From: a virus
Length of the DNA: 30,160 nucleotides
Strand: one strand, 5' to 3'
IMG/VR virus record: IMGVR_UViG_3300023281_002227
Span: 13,538-43,697 of that record
The notes under the pieces are model-generated. The model was not told the DNA's origin and searched no databases. It saw nothing but the letters and a program-made list of their open reading frames with translations. Made by a program: the position numbers and the translations under genes. Each line of letters begins with the position of its first letter. The first letter of the stretch is position 1. Shown here one piece after another: positions 2,994-14,891 of this stretch.

Positions 2994-4862
2994 TTATTGA
3001 TCTATTACTAGGTCGTCTTCCTTACCCTTGTTCATCTTATAAGTTTGTGGTGTTTCAGCTTTAGGAACATAAGGATTCTGTAGATTAGGCCATGTGCTTT
3101 CATCTCCCCAGTGAGCTAATTGTCCACTGTCTGTATCGATATGTTTTTCACCAGAAATCTTATAATCGCCAAATGGCTTCAAGATATAAGGATTATTTAA
3201 AGATGGGTAAACACCGTCGTTAGACCAGTTGCCCCAGCTTCTATTTCTCATTTCATCGGCTAATCCACCTTTATAGCTATCTCCGTCAGATACTGGTGCT
3301 GAGTCGCCCCAATCGCCTGTGAAGTCGCTAGCTGGTGCATAACCTTGTTGTGCTTTCTTAGCCATATCTGGATGGTCACCACTTACAGTAACGTGTGGAG
3401 TGTTAGAAACATTCCAATCTTTACTGTCTAAGTTAGTTTCAACCAAACTCCATAGCCATTCAGCAGCAGATGTTGCAGCTTCCGAAGAAGGCTCGATCTC
3501 TTGTTGAATGATAGATAGCAATTCATTCAAGTGTGTTGCAGCTTCTGCTTGCAACATACCTTCTTGCTTGTCGCCTGCTAATACATGTACGTTGCGAATA
3601 GCTTCGTACAGATCAACAAATACTTGCATTTCCATCTGTGTATTTTCGTCTAGATATGGGAAATAATCGCTGACAACATTCTTGAAGAATGAGTATTTGT
3701 CTTCGACATTTTCTTGTAGACTTGCACCAGATAAAGTAAGGATTTTATTAACACGATCAACATAGTTGTCATGTAATGTACGCAAGATACCTTCTGCCAT
3801 GAAATCACAAGTTTGATCATCATAATTAGTAGCATTAACTGCTTCTAATGAGTTCTTGATAATTTCAGATAGCTCAGTTTCAGTTAGATAAAGAGCTTGT
3901 GGCCATGCACTAGCAATGTTTTCTAATGTCTCAATAAGAGTATCATTATCAGACAAAGCATTTTGACGTTTTAGATCTGAAATTGCTTTCCAGAAGTTAC
4001 TATCTTCGCCAAGTGTTTTAGCACCATTACGTTTGATGATAACGTCAGTGTTAAGAGTTTTCCAATCAAACTCTTTCAATTTAGATTCGTTACGTAGTTC
4101 CATGTTAGGAACTTTTAGTGTAACGACATTGCCTCTCTCATCATGAGAAGCAACAGATTCATTAACTACAGGACCATATTCTTTATAATCTAAGTAATTA
4201 AATACACCTTCGCATAGGTTAAACCATTCTTTAACCATTCTCTTTTCACCAGGAAGCTTAATAATAGCACGATGGCTAGCTTTAGTCTTCTTGGCACCTG
4301 GACCTATTTTCTTTTGGCTCTTAATACGACCTCTAACACGTTTGTTAGTATCGCTAGAGCTTTCTTTAGTTCCATGTGATCTTTCTTTGACTTTTTTATA
4401 TTTTCCAGTACCATGTAATTTACCATCTGGTCCCATTTTTCTTTCTTCTCGTCTTCGGACGATAGTAGAGCCTTCATTGAAGGTTCTTCGGGTCAAAGGT
4501 AGATTTACATAACTTTCAAATAACTGGTCTGCTTTCTCTGTCTCGTCTACTAGAAGAGATTCGACCAAATCAGACAAAATTTCACGAGATTTTTGAATCT
4601 CGGTATCTTCGTCAATTACTAATTGTTCAATGTTTTCAAAGACAATGTGTCCGTTTTTCAATTGATAGTTTGCATGTACAAAGCTACCATCTACGGACTC
4701 ATAAATTACATCCTCGACACCAAAGCAACGTAGCTCGGCGTTAGGTAGGCCCAATGACCTAGCCATAACGTTCTCGGCTTCAGTTAACTCGTGCTGTGCT
4801 GACGATAATGAATCTTTTTCTATTCTCTCGAAAACATCATACCCAATGAGTCGTCTTTTCAT
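2994..4862 (-). CDS. Unknown 622-residue protein in the prohead gene cluster
   Basis: I do not recognise a family. The gene lies between portal and protease, the place of the small prohead core genes 67 and 68 in T4, so a head or prohead role is a reasonable inference. Residues 1-130 are mixed and acidic; about 130-200 form a very basic, glycine-containing stretch (RRREERK, KGKYKKVK-type, GPGAKKTK) that could bind nucleic acid or the acidic core. The middle is helical. The C-terminal 120 residues carry a degenerate Trp-rich repeat: SWGNWS...YPSLNNPYILK (about 542-562) and HWGDESTWPNLQNPYVPK (584-601), with an earlier DWGDSAP. A ribosome binding site (GGGAG) precedes ATG 4862, and 19 nt separate it from the protease start. 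Virion proteomics would settle its place. Confidence 0.75.
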   Translation of the reverse strand: MKRRLIGYDVFERIEKDSLSSAQHELTEAENVMARSLGLPNAELRCFGVEDVIYESVDGSFVHANYQLKNGHIVFENIEQLVIDEDTEIQKSREILSDLVESLLVDETEKADQLFESYVNLPLTRRTFNEGSTIVRRREERKMGPDGKLHGTGKYKKVKERSHGTKESSSDTNKRVRGRIKSQKKIGPGAKKTKASHRAIIKLPGEKRMVKEWFNLCEGVFNYLDYKEYGPVVNESVASHDERGNVVTLKVPNMELRNESKLKEFDWKTLNTDVIIKRNGAKTLGEDSNFWKAISDLKRQNALSDNDTLIETLENIASAWPQALYLTETELSEIIKNSLEAVNATNYDDQTCDFMAEGILRTLHDNYVDRVNKILTLSGASLQENVEDKYSFFKNVVSDYFPYLDENTQMEMQVFVDLYEAIRNVHVLAGDKQEGMLQAEAATHLNELLSIIQQEIEPSSEAATSAAEWLWSLVETNLDSKDWNVSNTPHVTVSGDHPDMAKKAQQGYAPASDFTGDWGDSAPVSDGDSYKGGLADEMRNRSWGNWSNDGVYPSLNNPYILKPFGDYKISGEKHIDTDSGQLAHWGDESTWPNLQNPYVPKAETPQTYKMNKGKEDDLVIDQ

Positions 4863-5639: not shown

Positions 5640-8198
5640 TTATCTTTCTTGACTAAAATCAATTTCTTCATGATCTATTTCTTTAGCATAACCCTGTATT
5701 TCTAGATCATATTGTTTAATTTCGTCGTTTGTAGGATCAGCCAACGGTACGCCTCCAGGTGAAACTCCACCTTCTGGTGCTGCACCTCCTCCTTCTTCTG
5801 GAGGTTGTCCTGACATATCGCCTTCTTGTCCTGACATATCGCCTTCTTGTCCTGGCATACCGCCTTCTGGTGGTGGTGCCCCTTCTGGTCCAAGCATTGG
5901 ATTTGGGCCTCCTGCTTCGGCACCTAATTCGGTTTCGCCTTGGCCTGGCTGTCCTACACCTAACATTTCAGGGTTTTGTAGCAATATTTGAAGTTTAGCA
6001 TCTTCTAATTTCTGGATTTTATTTCTAGAAATTATTTCATCTGCTTCATCATCTGTTAGTTGCATATATCTCGTGTACAAGTCCCAATCTGACATCAACA
6101 ACGACCCTTTAAGACTTGTAATAGTACTAATTCTAGTCTGCATTACTTCTGCACGACTTAATTCTCTCCAATCAGATGGAGGTGTCATTGTAATTTTAAT
6201 ATCATCATACGATTCTTCTGGAAAACCTCTTAATTCTAAGTGTCTTTCGCATAATTCTATAATTCCATCGATCACATGTGACTGGATTCTTTCAATCATT
6301 CTAGCAAATTTAACATCTTGAGCAGACAATGTAATTCTTGTTGCTTGTGTATCTTCATTGCTAAAGTAATTTTTAGGGAAATTAAGAGCAGTATATAACT
6401 TATTACGGAAATACAAAGCATCGTCAATTTCACCTAAATTTTGTGCTCCAGGAAGCGTATCAATTCTAGTATTGGCGTTTGGTCTAATGGGTAGCCAATA
6501 ATCTTCGTCTTGTGCGGGTGCGTGCCATCTTTCTTCAACTTGACCTGCACCACCTTGTCCTGATTTTCCTGTTGCTACTTTTTTCTTACGAAATTGGTCT
6601 TTAAGCCGTTCAATAAATGCTTCTGCTTTAAACGGTGGTAATTGTCCAACATCGATATAAAACACACGTCTTTCAGGTGCTCTGGTCAATCTATAGACAA
6701 GCATTGCATCTTCCATAAGACGAAGTTGATGTGCTGGTCCACGAGCAGGTTCAATTAAAGATTGTCCATAAGGATAGAAAGTTTCTCTATCATCACCAAT
6801 TCTAAAGTGAATAATTTGGTGTGGATCAAATCTAATAGCAGTTGCTTGCATTAAGTCTGCTTCAGTAGCTTGTGTGACTTCGGCCCTTGTTAAAGACTGT
6901 AGATCTGGACCTTCTTTAGACTGTTGAAACTCTACTAATCGTCCTCTTGTAGTTTCTAATCTATACATTGAATCTGGTGGTAATTCTTGTATTTTTAGAA
7001 TCCCATCTTTTGGACTGGCAGGATTAATTACATTCTCTACAAAGTAATCTCCAAAAATACATAATTTTTTAACAATGTTCCAAATCCTTCTATCAAGATT
7101 TAACATCTTGCGATGAAACATTACAAATTCGCATTCTTTTTTAACTTCTTCATTAGAACATTCGAGATGGAATATGTGATCATCTTCGCCTCTTTGACAG
7201 TTGTGCATAACAACTGAGTCCGTACAGAAGTTTTTATGTCCTTCTACAGAAAGGTCGTATACAGGTTGTTTAAGCCACTTAATTTTTCCTATAACACGAC
7301 GACGATCTCTCTTCTTTCCAAGCCATTTTAATTCTTTTAATGTATAGCCAGCTTTTTTTATCCAATCTTCACACGTCTTCCATTGATGACCTGTAATTTC
7401 TTCTATCTGTTTAACAGTAGAGCCAGTTGCGATTAGACGACATATTTGGTTTACTTCTTTATCTCGCTTTTCAGTTTCACCTAGTTTCCATTCGTCTATG
7501 AACTGTCTTTCATTCTTCCATCCATCTGCGAATGTAAAAATACGAGGAAATAATTTTGTACCAATATCGTTTTTAGTTCGATTTGCATCAATTTTATAAA
7601 ACGGCATTAGTTCATCATTTTGTTCTAGATCTTCTGCATTTACCCACTCGCCATCTTGTTTAAGGATTCTATGATCAGGTGTTACTACGAAATCGCTACC
7701 ATCATCTAAAAGTATTTTAATAGTTTGAGCTTCTTCATGAACTCTTCTAGGATCATAAGCCCAACCCAATGTATAGTCGTTTTTGTCGAAATCCCAACAA
7801 TAAACCAAGAAAGGTTCACCGTCATAATGTTCAGTCAGCCATTCAATGGTACGTTGTCCATGAAATAATGTAGCTATTCTTGTATGGCCACCGACACATG
7901 CTTCATCAGCAATAACGGTCATAGCCATTTCAATTTCTGCTACATTTCTAAGGCGTTCGTACTCTTTATATCTTGACTGGCGATTTGTTACAGTAGAAAG
8001 ATCAATGAATTCGTTACTATCACGTAAACGTACTGATCCTCTACCACCTCCCCAATAGCTGCCATCTTGACGTATGTCAGGCACAGCATCGGGACTGCCG
8101 ATACCTGCACCAGTTAGGTCAAGCTTATTAGCTGCCTTAGAGTAGGGGTCTTTTTCAAATGTATATGAAAATAATTTATACCAATCCCACCAGGGCAT
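5640..8198 (-). CDS. 20: Portal protein, T4 gp20-like, containing an intein
   Basis: The portal is the dodecameric ring at one head vertex through which DNA enters. The precursor is 852 residues, of which 101-333 are an intein; the spliced product would be 619 residues (T4 gp20 is 524). Portal landmarks include VTNRQSRYKEYERLR and EMAMTVIADEA before the intein, and after it RRIWNIVKKLCIFGDYFVE, PHQIIHFRIGD, YPYGQSLIEPAR and AMLVYRLTRAPERRVFYIDVG. LPGAQNLGEIDDALYFRNKLY and ALNFPKNYF follow. The C-terminal 110 residues are Gly/Pro/Glu-rich and contain three copies of a seven-residue repeat (5806-5868). A strong site, GAAGGAG, lies 7 nt before ATG 8198. Splicing is predicted, not shown, but the exteins join in frame at a conserved portal position. 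Confidence 0.95.
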   Translation of the reverse strand: MPWWDWYKLFSYTFEKDPYSKAANKLDLTGAGIGSPDAVPDIRQDGSYWGGGRGSVRLRDSNEFIDLSTVTNRQSRYKEYERLRNVAEIEMAMTVIADEACVGGHTRIATLFHGQRTIEWLTEHYDGEPFLVYCWDFDKNDYTLGWAYDPRRVHEEAQTIKILLDDGSDFVVTPDHRILKQDGEWVNAEDLEQNDELMPFYKIDANRTKNDIGTKLFPRIFTFADGWKNERQFIDEWKLGETEKRDKEVNQICRLIATGSTVKQIEEITGHQWKTCEDWIKKAGYTLKELKWLGKKRDRRRVIGKIKWLKQPVYDLSVEGHKNFCTDSVVMHNCQRGEDDHIFHLECSNEEVKKECEFVMFHRKMLNLDRRIWNIVKKLCIFGDYFVENVINPASPKDGILKIQELPPDSMYRLETTRGRLVEFQQSKEGPDLQSLTRAEVTQATEADLMQATAIRFDPHQIIHFRIGDDRETFYPYGQSLIEPARGPAHQLRLMEDAMLVYRLTRAPERRVFYIDVGQLPPFKAEAFIERLKDQFRKKKVATGKSGQGGAGQVEERWHAPAQDEDYWLPIRPNANTRIDTLPGAQNLGEIDDALYFRNKLYTALNFPKNYFSNEDTQATRITLSAQDVKFARMIERIQSHVIDGIIELCERHLELRGFPEESYDDIKITMTPPSDWRELSRAEVMQTRISTITSLKGSLLMSDWDLYTRYMQLTDDEADEIISRNKIQKLEDAKLQILLQNPEMLGVGQPGQGETELGAEAGGPNPMLGPEGAPPPEGGMPGQEGDMSGQEGDMSGQPPEEGGGAAPEGGVSPGGVPLADPTNDEIKQYDLEIQGYAKEIDHEEIDFSQER
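5806..5868. repeat. Three tandem 21 bp repeats in the portal tail
   Basis: A 21 bp unit beginning TGTCCTGACATATCG occurs at 5806-5826 and 5827-5847 (identical) and at 5848-5868 (two changes). On the minus strand each unit encodes a seven-residue Gln-Glu-Gly-Asp-Met-type repeat in the flexible Gly/Pro-rich tail. Copy number could vary between relatives through slippage. Confidence 0.85.
7200..7898 (-). other. Intein in the portal protein (233 residues)
   Basis: Residues 101-333 of the portal precursor form a protein-splicing element. It starts with the nucleophile Cys in CVGGHTRIAT (block A), has the block B motif VVTPDHRIL with the Thr-x-x-His, and ends with VYDLSVEGHKNF (block F) and SVVMHN just before Cys334 (block G, His-Asn/Cys). 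All residues needed for class 1 splicing are present. Between blocks B and F lie about 130 residues without a LAGLIDADG or HNH motif. This part contains a helix-turn-helix-like segment (about 255-285, TVKQIEEITGHQWKTCEDWI) and a very basic patch (KKRDRRR), perhaps the remnant of a homing endonuclease or a DNA-binding domain. The insertion point is in the conserved IADEA region. Confidence 0.93.
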
Positions 8199-8251
8199 AG
8201 TAAATCTCCTTCTTCTAGTTGCTGTTACCTAAGCTATATCTAGGAGTTATA

Positions 8252-8848
8252 ATGAAAAAAGTAGTATTCATTGTTACGCATTTATGTTCAGGCTCTTCTG
8301 ATTTGATGAATGTATTAAATGAAAATCCAAGAATTGATATTAAAAAAACAGATACAGTTTATGATCATCCAGACACTTTAAACTCATTATTTAATTTAGG
8401 ACATAAATTAGATAATACAGCAGCCGTATATGGAGATCAGCTTTTTTATAATATTTCACTCTCTTGTAAGCGTTTTTATGATTTTTCTAAGTTTGTCTAT
8501 CTGATTAGAAGGCCCGATCCGACTATAGCTGAAATAGTAGCTAATCCTAATTTTTCATATTCTATAGAAAGTGCGAGTCGTTATTACTGCTTTAGATTAA
8601 GAAGAATTTGTGAAATGGCTAGAAAAACTCCAGGATCAGTATTTTTAACTTGGGAAGATTTAGTTTATCATAAAGGGCATGAAGTACTTGAAAAGTATTT
8701 TAAATTGAAAGACCCGTTAAACCCATGTAATCCCACTATTGAAAAGCCAAGAGTAGACATACCGATAGATATTTTAGAAAGATGTGAAGCTAGTTATGAG
8801 CGACATCTTTATTACACTAACCAATTAGATTTAAGGCGTGTGCAATGA
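8252..8848 (+). CDS. Sulfotransferase-like protein
   Basis: Sulfotransferases move a sulfate group from PAPS to a sugar, peptide or small molecule. This 198-residue protein has the expected plan: an N-terminal strand and phosphate-binding loop (FIVTHLCSGSSDLMNVLNENP, residues 6-26), a central KFVYLIRRPDPTIAEI (80-95) corresponding to the 3'-phosphate site, and FLTWEDLV (131-138) late in the fold. The loop has Ser-Gly-Ser-Ser but lacks the usual Arg before it, so activity is not assured. It is short for the family. The frame extends upstream to 8219, but AGGAG at 8242-8246 places the start at ATG 8252. Its stop overlaps the next gene (ATGA), making it the first gene of a coupled three-gene cassette with an oxygenase and a glycosyltransferase. 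Confidence 0.7.
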   Translation: MKKVVFIVTHLCSGSSDLMNVLNENPRIDIKKTDTVYDHPDTLNSLFNLGHKLDNTAAVYGDQLFYNISLSCKRFYDFSKFVYLIRRPDPTIAEIVANPNFSYSIESASRYYCFRLRRICEMARKTPGSVFLTWEDLVYHKGHEVLEKYFKLKDPLNPCNPTIEKPRVDIPIDILERCEASYERHLYYTNQLDLRRVQ

Positions 8849-9630
8849 GACTTGTAATGGATACCCCAAAGTTTGCGGTATACGATGATGTTTTACCAGA
8901 AGAAGAATTTAAAAAATTGTGGTTATATGTTCAAAATGATATGTACGCTTACCCACATACACAACAATGGATGAAAGTATGGCGTTTAAATGATGGTACG
9001 CCTGTGGGAAGTAGAGATTATAAATACACAGAACGTCCTTTCAATAACCCAATAGATATAATCTCTGATGCAGTTGAAAAGGTTGTACCAAATCATGATT
9101 TTGTAAAACCTTGGGATGAATTACATATTCGTTCTTATCTTTATCCTAGAAATACAAAATTGTCATGGCATAATGATAGTGGATATGAAGGTGCTTTTAT
9201 TTTCTATACCCACCCTAGATGGGCATCTACTTGGGGTGGAGAATTGATGATACATGAAGTTCCTGAAGAATTACCCAAATGGCATCATGGAGATGAAACA
9301 ACAAAACCACATTTAGATCATCGTTGGGAAGATGCGGTTTTAGAAGCATATGGTATGGGAAATTATATTACTGCTAAACCTAACAGGTTAGTTATTACTG
9401 GAAAAAATGTCTGGCATGCTGTAAATCGAGTAGATGCCGATGCAGGCGATAACTCTCGATGTAGTGTTGTTGGGTTTTATAAAAAATATCCAGAAGAAAT
9501 ACAAGAACTAGAAGATCTACATGAAGAAGTAAGAGAAGTAGATAAAAAGTATCTTCCAGTTAAAAATATAGAGATAGAAACAGTAGACCCAATTCAAGCT
9601 ATGAAGGCAATCAATACAATTAAACTTTAA
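8845..9630 (+). CDS. 2-oxoglutarate/Fe(II)-dependent oxygenase, prolyl hydroxylase-like
   Basis: Enzymes of this family hydroxylate proteins or small molecules using iron, oxygen and 2-oxoglutarate. The 261-residue protein has the iron ligands His109 and Asp111 (SWHNDSG), a YTHPRW...WGGELMIHE strand pair typical of the jelly-roll core, the distal His191 (VWHAVNRVD) and Arg205 (SRCSVVGFY), which should hold 2-oxoglutarate. All catalytic residues are therefore present. The layout fits the prolyl-4-hydroxylase-like group known from several T4-like marine phages, but the substrate cannot be read from sequence. The ATG overlaps the stop of the sulfotransferase gene, and its own stop overlaps the ATG of the glycosyltransferase gene, so the three are translated together. 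An internal ATG at 8857 is an alternative start without a better ribosome site. Confidence 0.85.
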   Translation: MRLVMDTPKFAVYDDVLPEEEFKKLWLYVQNDMYAYPHTQQWMKVWRLNDGTPVGSRDYKYTERPFNNPIDIISDAVEKVVPNHDFVKPWDELHIRSYLYPRNTKLSWHNDSGYEGAFIFYTHPRWASTWGGELMIHEVPEELPKWHHGDETTKPHLDHRWEDAVLEAYGMGNYITAKPNRLVITGKNVWHAVNRVDADAGDNSRCSVVGFYKKYPEEIQELEDLHEEVREVDKKYLPVKNIEIETVDPIQAMKAINTIKL

Positions 9631-10475
9631 TGGAATATATCACTAGCATTGACAACACGCCTTATATGCGATGGCAAGCAGCTTTGTTGCTTGAAAGTTT
9701 TCGTATGAGAGGCATGGAAGACAAATTGCTCATAACATGTGCAGAACATCATTTGGCAAAACCAGTAGAAGGTAGAGTTTTGTATCATGACAATGTTGGA
9801 CAGAATTATGCGTGCTTAAATAGAGCAAAAGGTATTCTAGAAGCTGTTAAAAGAAAAGAAATTAAACAACCGTTTGTTTCTATTGATCCTGATACTTTTA
9901 TGATACGTCCTATAGATCCTATAGAGACACAAGTTGCTGGCAATGATTTATTTTACGCAAGTTATGACAACATTAAAGACAATGATGGATATGATGTTGA
10001 AGAGATGTTTGGCATCTCAAAAGAGAAATGGCCTGGATTAGGAACTGTTTACCATTTTAATGATGTTCCAGAAACATTATTTCAATCCATTTATGATTGG
10101 ACTGAAAAATTATCAATAGATTTAAAAGGCAAGATAGGACAAAAAAGTTATTGGCAAATTGATATAACTGCTTACAATGTAGCTTTTGTCAAAAATGGAA
10201 TTGAATGCACATCTTATCTTTATGAATCACCTCTTGACCCTCTTCTAAAACCATCAGTAGATGATGTTAATTTTGTACATTATTGCAACGGCGTTTTGCC
10301 AGGTTTCAACAAACGTCATCACAATGCTGCTAATTGGTTTTCAATGAACGAAGCATTGCCTTTTGAAACAATTTTAAAAATATCTAAAAAAGGCAAAAGA
10401 ATCAAAGCTTTTAAAAAAGTTGTAAGGTGCTTTTTAAATCGTAAACCTGATTTAACAAATTTTTTAATCGAATAA
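9630..10475 (+). CDS. Glycosyltransferase, resembling hydroxyproline/serine glycosyltransferases
   Basis: This 281-residue protein looks like a GT-A glycosyltransferase. It opens with ITSIDNTPYMRWQAALLLES, has a tract LNRAKGILEAV, and then FVSIDPDTFMIRPID with a DxD motif (Asp86, Asp88) expected to bind the metal and sugar nucleotide. Later come YWQIDITAYNVAF and NFVHYCNGV. The same order (T-x-D-x-Y-x-x-WQ, then EPD-x-x-F-x-RP, then a HY segment) is remembered from plant hydroxyproline O-arabinosyltransferases and peptidyl-serine galactosyltransferases. That resemblance is by eye and needs a profile search. The C-terminal 40 residues are strongly basic. It directly follows the oxygenase gene (1 nt overlap), and its 3' end overlaps the convergent gene at 10464 by 12 nt. 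Confidence 0.7.
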   Translation: MEYITSIDNTPYMRWQAALLLESFRMRGMEDKLLITCAEHHLAKPVEGRVLYHDNVGQNYACLNRAKGILEAVKRKEIKQPFVSIDPDTFMIRPIDPIETQVAGNDLFYASYDNIKDNDGYDVEEMFGISKEKWPGLGTVYHFNDVPETLFQSIYDWTEKLSIDLKGKIGQKSYWQIDITAYNVAFVKNGIECTSYLYESPLDPLLKPSVDDVNFVHYCNGVLPGFNKRHHNAANWFSMNEALPFETILKISKKGKRIKAFKKVVRCFLNRKPDLTNFLIE

Positions 10476-10808
10476 AGTATTTGTGTCTGTTAGAGGATCA
10501 TTTTTATGTTTAAGTTCATTTAGTTTATCTTTTTCATTATCAATCATAGAATCAAGATGATTGATCAAACCATGCTTCAACGTTTCCGTCATAGGATTAA
10601 GCATAGATCCAGTTTTTAAATCTAGCTTCCATTTATCAGCAGGTGTCATTTGATCGTTTACTAATCTCTTAGCCTTTTTATTTTCAGTATAAACGACTTC
10701 TTCTATGGCCCTAACAATATGATTGCGTGCCGTGCTGAAAGCGTTGCTCGGAGGCAACGCTTTCAGTGCTTGTTCTAATAAGCTTAATGATTTTTCAGTT
10801 TTTTTCAT
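10464..10808 (-). CDS. Small unknown protein downstream of terminase
   Basis: This 114-residue helical protein has no family I recognise. Its start codon overlaps the terminase stop by 1 nt, so it belongs to the terminase transcript and may act in packaging, but it lies after gp17 rather than before it as the T4 small terminase does. It begins MKKTEKSLSLLEQALKALPP and contains charged helices to the end. A 13 bp perfect hairpin (10735-10766) lies inside codons 15-25. The 3' end overlaps the glycosyltransferase gene by 12 nt, tail to tail. Confidence 0.7.
   Translation of the reverse strand: MKKTEKSLSLLEQALKALPPSNAFSTARNHIVRAIEEVVYTENKKAKRLVNDQMTPADKWKLDLKTGSMLNPMTETLKHGLINHLDSMIDNEKDKLNELKHKNDPLTDTNTLFD
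10735..10766. repeat. 13 bp perfect hairpin inside a coding gene
   Basis: CTGAAAGCGTTGC (10735-10747) and GCAACGCTTTCAG (10754-10766) pair without mismatch around loop TCGGAG. There is no T-run on either side, so it is not an ordinary terminator. It lies near the 5' end of the gene it interrupts. Confidence 0.85.
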
Positions 10809-14181: not shown

Positions 14182-14451
14182 ATGAAAGATATTTACAACT
14201 TAATACCACCAGACGATCTTCACTGGGTTGAAGATCGTTTTACCCCATTTTCAGATGATGAATATAAAAAGATTATAGATGCTTGTCATGCAAGCAATTA
14301 TCATGAATTAAATGAAATTATGAAAATGGTTAGATGGTGCGAACAAATTAGATGCGGATCGCTCTTTATCAATGGTCTAATGTCTGGTAGATTAAAGTTC
14401 GATTTTAACGAAAATGAAGAACCTAGTTTTAGTGTAAAGGAAATGTTATGA
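14182..14451 (+). CDS. Small unknown protein
   Basis: This 89-residue protein, MKDIYNLIPPDDLHWVEDRF..., is of unknown family and has no signal peptide or membrane segment. It has three cysteines in the middle (about 35-57) and an acidic C-terminus. It starts 7 nt after the M28 gene and its stop overlaps the start of the ferritin-like gene by 4 nt, so it sits in a plus-strand run of coupled genes. The ribosome binding site is weak. Two hairpins lie within its first 120 nt (14213-14238 and a weaker 14280-14296). Confidence 0.65.
   Translation: MKDIYNLIPPDDLHWVEDRFTPFSDDEYKKIIDACHASNYHELNEIMKMVRWCEQIRCGSLFINGLMSGRLKFDFNENEEPSFSVKEML
14213..14238. repeat. Hairpin near the 5' end of the 14182 gene
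   Basis: ACGATCTTCA and TGAAGATCGT form a perfect 10 bp stem around loop CTGGGT. It lies in codons 11-19, and a second 6 bp stem (TGCTTG/CAAGCA) follows at 14280-14296. Confidence 0.6.
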
Positions 14452-14891
14452 CACTTGAAGATTTAATTAATCTTTTAAATGAAGATTTAAGCAAAGAATA
14501 TGCACATTGGAGTTTTTATATTCAAGCAGCAACTAGAGTTACTGGCTTGAATAGAGAAGAACTTAGTGAATTTTTGCTAAAAGAAGCTGCTGGAGAAATG
14601 AAACACATTGAAGAGTTTAAAAGATTAATTATAGGTCTAGGTGGCAATCCTACTACTCATGTTGGTCCTTATAATTCAGACGCATGTACGCCATCTATCA
14701 TTTTAGCAGAAGCTCTTAAAATGGAAGATGAAGTAGTTGAAAGATATGTTTATCGAATTGATGACGCAATAGAACTACAAGGAAATGGTGGTAAAGACAA
14801 AGTTAACGGAAAATACATTGAGCTTTTCTTAGAAGAACAAATTTTAGATTCTCGTGCTGATGCTGACCATATTAGAGAAATGCTAAAGTAG
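14448..14891 (+). CDS. Ferritin-like di-iron protein
   Basis: This 147-residue four-helix-bundle protein resembles bacterioferritin and related proteins that oxidise and store iron. Likely di-iron ligands are Glu17 (LSKEYAHW), Glu50 and His53 (GEMKHIEE), Glu93 (ALKMEDE) and Asp138 with His141 (ADADHIRE). The last pair would be Asp-x-x-His, where Glu-x-x-His is usual. Length and helix spacing fit a single complete domain, without the longer storage-cage features I can recognise. A role in iron handling or oxidative stress during infection is an inference. The start overlaps the previous stop by 4 nt, and the gene ends shortly before a promoter-like sequence for the next unit. Confidence 0.8.
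   Translation: MTLEDLINLLNEDLSKEYAHWSFYIQAATRVTGLNREELSEFLLKEAAGEMKHIEEFKRLIIGLGGNPTTHVGPYNSDACTPSIILAEALKMEDEVVERYVYRIDDAIELQGNGGKDKVNGKYIELFLEEQILDSRADADHIREMLK

What the first reader, a model, noticed from the sequence alone, without database searches (positions are those of the whole stretch)
8252..10475. Coupled sulfotransferase - 2OG oxygenase - glycosyltransferase cassette
Seen: three plus-strand genes overlap stop-to-start (ATGA at 8845, 1 nt at 9630), so they are made together. The first has sulfotransferase PAPS-site segments, the second a complete 2OG-Fe(II) site (His109, Asp111, His191, Arg205), the third a DPD motif in a context like plant hydroxyproline O-arabinosyltransferases and peptidyl-serine galactosyltransferases. 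Known: prolyl hydroxylation followed by O-glycosylation is a plant and algal pathway, and prolyl-hydroxylase-like oxygenases occur in T4-like phages. Inference: this is a complete hydroxylate, glycosylate, sulfate module for proline-rich proteins, possibly acting on the phage's own Pro/Gly-rich sequences (portal tail, M28 linker) or on a host surface polymer.
Basis: partly seen in the sequence, partly recalled or inferred. Interest (0 to 1): 0.85.

Follow-up and report, generated by a model that had tools for sequence, protein, structure and literature searches.

The report
Phage sulfotransferase-like, oxygenase, glycosyltransferase operon
A large uncultured bacterial virus carries three tightly coupled genes, for a sulfotransferase-shaped protein, a hydroxylating oxygenase and a sugar-adding enzyme; related viruses carry the same operon with a different sugar enzyme in third place, which suggests a hydroxylate-then-glycosylate modification whose target is still unknown.

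Summary
Three ORFs overlap stop-to-start (ATGA, TAATG), and structure or profile evidence assigns each a fold: sulfotransferase (P0001), 2OG-Fe(II) oxygenase (P0002), GT-A glycosyltransferase (P0003). P0001 is not a cassette gene: it is a clade-wide gene beside the portal in large T4-like phages, usually present without the other two. Its family has lost the canonical PAPS-site Lys/Arg and 3'-phosphate Ser, so sulfation is doubtful. P0002 is intact and optional. P0003 is a divergent member of a phage family that otherwise sits at another conserved locus; its relatives touch the HPAT profile only below threshold, and the exact trio was found nowhere else. The same class order, ST-2OG-GT, does recur in a related clade with an unrelated GT2 enzyme, and a third lineage couples the 2OG gene to another GT2. 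I therefore favour a hydroxylate-then-glycosylate module with interchangeable glycosyltransferases. The target is probably a virion or fibre protein or a surface glycan; proline is not shown. Portals of 2OG-bearing phages have fewer tail prolines, not more. The recurrence rests on few independent events, and a phylogeny-corrected test was not significant.

The parts
8252..8848 (+). P0001, compact (198 aa) sulfotransferase-fold protein; first gene after the portal, divergent from it
   Evidence: AF2 pLDDT 96.7, pTM 0.92; human TPST1 5wri Z 15.2, 182 of 198 residues, rmsd 2.7; Foldseek tick TPST E 1.9e-5; Sulfotransfer_3 weakly matched by 7 of 49 family members
8845..8848 (+). ATGA overlap of P0001 stop and P0002 start
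   Evidence: sequence; the same 4-nt overlap follows from coordinates in L005, L021, L023 and L031
8845..9630 (+). P0002, 2OG-Fe(II) oxygenase with intact H109-x-D111, H191, R205
   Evidence: PF13640 30.1 bits against cut-off 27; residues invariant in 33 homologues
9628..9632 (+). TAATG, 1-nt overlap of P0002 stop and P0003 start
   Evidence: sequence
9630..10475 (+). P0003, GT-A-fold glycosyltransferase, DPD at residues 86-88
   Evidence: AF2 pLDDT 85, pTM 0.87; glycogenin Z 14.8, LgtC Z 14.5, LgtC Foldseek E 3.9e-6, COLGALT1 E 2.8e-5, LH3 Z 12.5
5640..8198 (-). T4-like portal (gp20) with an intein; left border of the variable slot
   Evidence: PF07230 1.4e-76, PF14890 3.2e-10
10464..10808 (-). 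conserved small gene before the terminase; right border of the slot
   Evidence: homologues in L005, L006, L007
10808..12673 (-). terminase large subunit
   Evidence: phrog_2 4.6e-35

Best explanation
The portal-terminase slot of these large T4-like phages holds a clade-wide sulfotransferase-fold gene. In some lineages it is extended into a translationally coupled operon that adds a 2OG-Fe(II) hydroxylase and then a glycosyltransferase. Shown here: the folds, the coupling, and replacement of the third gene by unrelated glycosyltransferases. Inferred: the hydroxylase places a hydroxyl on a phage-controlled acceptor, most likely a tail-fibre or other surface protein, and the glycosyltransferase caps that hydroxyl with a sugar that differs between phages. 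P0001 acts on or recognises the same kind of acceptor, either with a remodelled active site or as a non-catalytic binding partner.
For: Fold and site assignments. Coupled overlaps. ST-2OG-GT order with a GT2/GT7C-type enzyme in a clade of 15 portal sequences, 12 of them with both 2OG and GT. P0003 fills the same position in the window although it is unrelated to that GT2. In a third lineage (L078, L083, L085, L087) a different GT2 (E 8.6e-20 to 3.1e-17) abuts or overlaps the same 2OG family from upstream. In cyanophage-type phages, including S-CAM4, the P0002 homologue directly follows tail-fibre or structural genes. In several slot relatives opposite-strand repeat genes that look like tail fibres follow the operon (by eye, no profile hit). 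Nearest solved relatives of P0002 by sequence profile, both below threshold, are a prolyl 4-hydroxylase (E 0.076) and a putative hydroxylase (E 0.14).
Against: No substrate is identified. The co-occurrence rests on about two independent gains of a GT in the slot; the tree-corrected test is not significant. Two relatives have the GT without 2OG and four have 2OG without GT. The P0003 family elsewhere is never next to the 2OG family. P0001 is usually alone. No mass-spectrometry data exist.
Confidence: 0.42

Rival explanations
1. The operon modifies the host cell surface: the oxygenase and glycosyltransferase act on an envelope polysaccharide or a small-molecule precursor to alter receptors or block superinfection.
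For: Large cyanophages carry polymorphic glycosyltransferase clusters, some with 2OG oxygenases, that have been read as capsule or O-antigen modification (PMC7824862). Some slot relatives add further sugar genes: GT17- and GT25-type and a possible glycosidase. The record also holds a Gly_transf_sug enzyme. The closest solved GT folds include LgtC, an LPS galactosyltransferase.
Against: No sugar-nucleotide synthesis genes were noticed in the slot, the P0002 family is next to fibre genes in cyanophages, and P0001's best fold match is a protein-tyrosine sulfotransferase.
Confidence: 0.3
2. There is no joint pathway: the slot is a cargo site in which unrelated enzymes accumulate one after another and are co-transcribed by position only.
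For: Other slot insertions are unrelated to modification: 2'-5' RNA ligase/Acb1-like and probable homing endonuclease-like genes. The exact trio is unique to the window. P0003 is a long-branch member of a family with its own locus. Phylogeny-corrected co-occurrence is not significant.
Against: Different glycosyltransferases are coupled by a few bases to the same 2OG family in separate lineages, on either side of it.
Confidence: 0.22
3. DNA hypermodification: the oxygenase hydroxylates a base and the glycosyltransferase caps it, as in TET/JBP systems or, by another route, T4 glucosyl-hydroxymethylcytosine.
For: The logic of hydroxylate then glycosylate is known for phage DNA; three P0002-family homologues graze the Tet_JBP profile (12.3-12.7 bits against a cut-off of 34.9).
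Against: The window record has no Tet_JBP match at E<=10 and no C5-cytosine methylase, although it is only a fragment; only 2 of 15 records in that set carry one. The best profile is PF13640.
Confidence: 0.05

Closest known systems
PAPS sulfotransferases, especially protein-tyrosine sulfotransferase TPST1/2
   Same: Whole-chain fold match (Z 15.2, 182 of 198 residues, rmsd 2.7); 3'-phosphate-site Arg86 kept in 44 of 48
   Different: Catalytic 5'-loop Lys/Arg is Gly, Cys, Phe or His in nearly all (1 Lys of 48), the 3'-phosphate Ser is kept in 3 of 48, and new invariant residues H10, N67, Y112, R115, E121 appear
2OG-Fe(II) oxygenases of the PF13640 group (prolyl 4-hydroxylase-like), common in T4-like cyanophages
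   Same: Complete facial triad and 2OG-binding Arg; same family adjacent to fibre genes in Synechococcus phage S-CAM4
   Different: No prolyl substrate shown; about 30% identical to the cyanophage form; C-terminal extension of about 45 residues in the window
GT8/GT6-like GT-A glycosyltransferases (glycogenin, LgtC)
   Same: Fold over residues 1-280, Z 14.5-14.8
   Different: 8-15% identity, no Pfam GT8 match, first Asp of DxD replaced by His in most of the family
Hydroxyproline O-arabinosyltransferases, HPAT (PF23452, GT95)
   Same: The only Pfam family matched by more than one member, at the N-terminal region (residues 4-133 on profile 4-139); none of about nine other phage GTs scanned hits it
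   Different: Below cut-off (18.2 against 23.9 bits), P0003 itself has no hit, acceptor unknown
Viral collagen-type hydroxylation plus glycosylation (mimivirus lysyl hydroxylase L230 and a separate collagen glucosyltransferase; PMC9546862)
   Same: Virus-encoded hydroxylate-then-glycosylate logic; COLGALT1 and LH3 are among the fold matches of P0003
   Different: Giant eukaryotic virus, different oxygenase family, separate genes, lysine not shown here
Virion glycosylation in mycobacteriophages (Freeman et al. 2023, cited in PMC12619734)
   Same: Phage-encoded glycosyltransferases acting on virion proteins
   Different: No 2OG oxygenase step known to me

Membership tests
PAPS sulfotransferase | sulfotransferase fold | tested here: met
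PAPS sulfotransferase | catalytic Lys/Arg of the 5'-phosphosulfate loop | tested here: not met
   position 12 is G34 F4 C3 H3 K1 M1 E1 Y1 of 48; register from the alignment to SULT7A1
PAPS sulfotransferase | 3'-phosphate-binding Arg and Ser | tested here: not met
   Arg86 44 of 48 kept, Ser at position 94 only 3 of 48
PAPS sulfotransferase | PAPS binding and sulfate transfer | not testable with these tools
   needs protein
2OG-Fe(II) oxygenase | HxD...H triad and distal Arg | tested here: met
   H109, D111, H191, R205 in 33 of 33
2OG-Fe(II) oxygenase | profile score above curated cut-off | tested here: met
   PF13640 30.1 against 27 bits
Prolyl 4-hydroxylase | relation to P4H enzymes and a prolyl substrate | tested here: inconclusive
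   nearest solved relative is a P4H but E 0.076; substrate not testable
GT-A glycosyltransferase | GT-A fold with metal-binding DxD | tested here: met
   Z 14.8 and DPD at 86-88; DxD is mostly HxD in relatives
HPAT / GT95 | PF23452 above cut-off | tested here: not met
   P0003 no hit; relatives at best 18.2 against 23.9 bits; the genome-search control rang nowhere, so that search alone is uninformative
HPAT / GT95 | transfer of arabinose to hydroxyproline | not testable with these tools
   needs enzyme assay
TET/JBP base oxygenase | PF12851 match | tested here: not met
   window record no match at E<=10

The most novel reading that the evidence does not exclude
A prokaryotic virus lineage has its own protein hydroxylation-glycosylation system. 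A 2OG hydroxylase makes the acceptor, interchangeable glycosyltransferases diversify the sugar, and a clade-wide sulfotransferase-fold protein with a rebuilt active site works with them on virion proteins.
Probability: 0.25. Interest if true: 0.8.

Novelty: new variant of a known kind. Interest (0 to 1): 0.55.

Why it matters
Cyanophages carry many 2OG oxygenases whose function has not been specifically investigated (PMC9602691). An operon that ties one to a glycosyltransferase, with the partner exchanged between lineages, gives a concrete testable role: making acceptors for glycosylation. If true, phages would have their own analogue of collagen- or extensin-type modification. A core sulfotransferase-fold protein without the canonical catalytic residues beside the portal of a widespread large-phage clade is itself unexplained.

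Tried and rejected
Direct look-ups of P0003 found nothing (viral and genome contigs; phages by tblastn; Pfam, PHROGs and PDB). Relatives appeared only after whole records of the clade were searched and an alignment was used. HPAT search across 51 records rang nowhere, controls included, so it neither supports nor excludes. The portal Pro/Gly tail as substrate was tested and not supported (median 12.5 prolines with P0002, 18 without, p 6e-5 before correcting for relatedness). The raw Fisher test for 2OG with GT (p 5e-8) should not be used: the labels cluster on the tree, and the independent-pair test is not significant. The T4 late-promoter consensus TATAAATA is not enriched and sigma-70 hits are below chance. 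P0003 against the second glycosyltransferase of the record: no relation. The PHROG label 'DNA endonuclease V' on P0002 relatives is taken as a misannotation.

Full report
What is there. The window is bases 13538-43697 of a 43.7-kb virus record from a large T4-like phage: portal with gp20 profile, terminase and prohead protease flank the finding. Between the portal (5640-8198, minus) and a small conserved minus-strand gene before the terminase lie three plus-strand ORFs at the stated coordinates, overlapping by ATGA and TAATG.

First gene, P0001. Alone it gives only a weak Sulfotransfer_3 hit (E 0.012), but seven of 49 family members hit that family and two hit Sulfotransfer_1. AlphaFold2 on 48 relatives gives pLDDT 96.7; the best solved matches are protein-tyrosine sulfotransferases (Z 15.2, 182 residues, rmsd 2.7). 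The fold is secure. The chemistry is not: aligned to SULT7A1, the catalytic Lys position is Gly/Phe/Cys/His in nearly all 48, and the 3'-phosphate Ser is kept in 3. Instead H10, N67, Y112, R115 and E121 are invariant. The gene is a clade feature: in 60 of 71 non-redundant loci that hold both genes it starts within 400 bases of the portal start, divergent from it, and most often it is the only gene of the slot. Some loci were fetched through this gene, so its universality is somewhat overstated; a few portal-scan loci lack it.

Second gene, P0002. PF13640 above cut-off, and the full 2OG-Fe(II) site is invariant in 33 homologues. It follows P0001 in 17 of 70 scored loci (L105 re-scored by hand because its ORF call began upstream, L053 left out as rearranged). 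The same family lies after tail-fibre or structural genes and before a second 2OG oxygenase in cyanophage-type phages including S-CAM4. In four loci of another lineage it abuts or overlaps an upstream GT2 gene. Nearest solved relatives by profile are a prolyl 4-hydroxylase and a putative hydroxylase, both below threshold.

Third gene, P0003. No direct match in any library. Searching whole records of the clade found seven relatives, and an alignment search then found 44 viral loci and one MAG contig. AlphaFold2 on 33 sequences: pLDDT 85, pTM 0.87; fold GT-A, nearest glycogenin and LgtC (Z about 14.5-14.8), with collagen hydroxylysine galactosyltransferase COLGALT1 and LH3 also listed. Its relatives sit elsewhere in their genomes, recurrently near SprT-like, histidine-phosphatase-like, ClpP-like and nucleotidyltransferase-like genes (read by eye), not beside the 2OG family. 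P0003 is a long branch of this family. The two relatives nearest to it touch PF23452 HPAT below cut-off; other phage glycosyltransferases scanned do not.

Does the trio recur? The exact trio does not. The class order does: ST-2OG-GT2 with the same short overlaps in one clade (for example L021, L031), and P0003 in the window is a second, unrelated enzyme in that position. Counts are 13 with both, 4 with 2OG only, 2 with GT only, 51 with neither. On the portal tree this is about two gains of GT in the slot and up to five changes for 2OG; the independent-pair test has three pairs and is not significant. The recurrence is suggestive, not proven.

Mechanism. The best reading is a hydroxylase that makes an acceptor and an exchangeable glycosyltransferase that caps it, attached to a core sulfotransferase-fold gene whose own role is open. 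Virion or fibre protein is favoured over host glycan by the cyanophage neighbourhood, the TPST-like fold and the repeat-protein genes downstream in relatives; this is inference. Proline as residue is not shown, and the portal tail is a poor candidate. DNA hypermodification was checked and is unlikely.

Known ground. Large cyanophages with glycosyltransferase clusters and 2OG enzymes have been read as surface-polysaccharide systems (PMC7824862). Phage 2OG oxygenases with structural similarity to the human prolyl hydroxylase EGLN3 are widespread (PMC12774648), and their function in viruses has not been specifically investigated (PMC9602691). Mimivirus provides a viral precedent for hydroxylate-then-glycosylate (PMC9546862, abstract-level). 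I found no report of a phage operon joining the two steps, though the paper search was limited.

Noticed in passing
window 5640-8198 minus; intein about 7200-7898: The portal protein holds an intein (Intein_splicing E 3.2e-10, residues about 101-333) that is kept across much of this phage clade; several relatives (L006, L021, L036, L044, L045, L050) have longer portals, suggesting a second insertion.
   Followed up: partly
L002 1-807 and 807-1895 (same virus record, outside the window): A Cys/Gly/Pro-rich gene at the start of the record overlaps stop-to-start (TAATG) with a Gly_transf_sug (DXD) glycosyltransferase, E 4e-8: a second glycosyltransferase in this phage, next to a possible surface protein.
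   Followed up: partly
L003 8539-9111 and 16 other slot loci: In many relatives the slot holds a 2'-5' RNA ligase-like / Acb1-like (anti-CBASS) gene on the minus strand in place of the 2OG and GT genes (PF13563 1e-4, Acb1 2.7e-4, both below cut-off).
   Followed up: partly
L004 5001-5600, phrog_19810 and phrog_274: 2OG oxygenases of the P0002 family carry the label 'DNA endonuclease V' in PHROGs and in cyanophage records, which looks like a propagated misannotation.
   Followed up: no
window about 8199-8251 and the same gap in relatives: The portal-P0001 intergenic region of many relatives holds repeated TAGTTA-type elements, often directly before the P0001 start (ACTCTA-n-TAGTTATG); possibly a phage-specific promoter.
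   Followed up: no
L216 and L217, P0003 relative at 4001-4801, P0001 relative at 6048-6710: In two near-identical loci a P0001-family and a P0003-family gene lie about 1.2 kb apart on opposite strands, without a portal nearby, amid other genes shared with the window (ferritin-like and others).
   Followed up: partly
window 14448-14891: Ferritin-like protein (PF00210 8.5e-14) encoded by the phage.
   Followed up: no
L002 7303-8295 and 1892-3163: The record also encodes a GlpX-type fructose-1,6-bisphosphatase (E 3e-94) and a class-III aminotransferase (E 3e-85), unusual cargo for a phage.
   Followed up: no
window 10732-10769: A 17-pair stem with a 4-base loop lies inside the coding region of the small minus-strand gene 10464-10808.
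   Followed up: no
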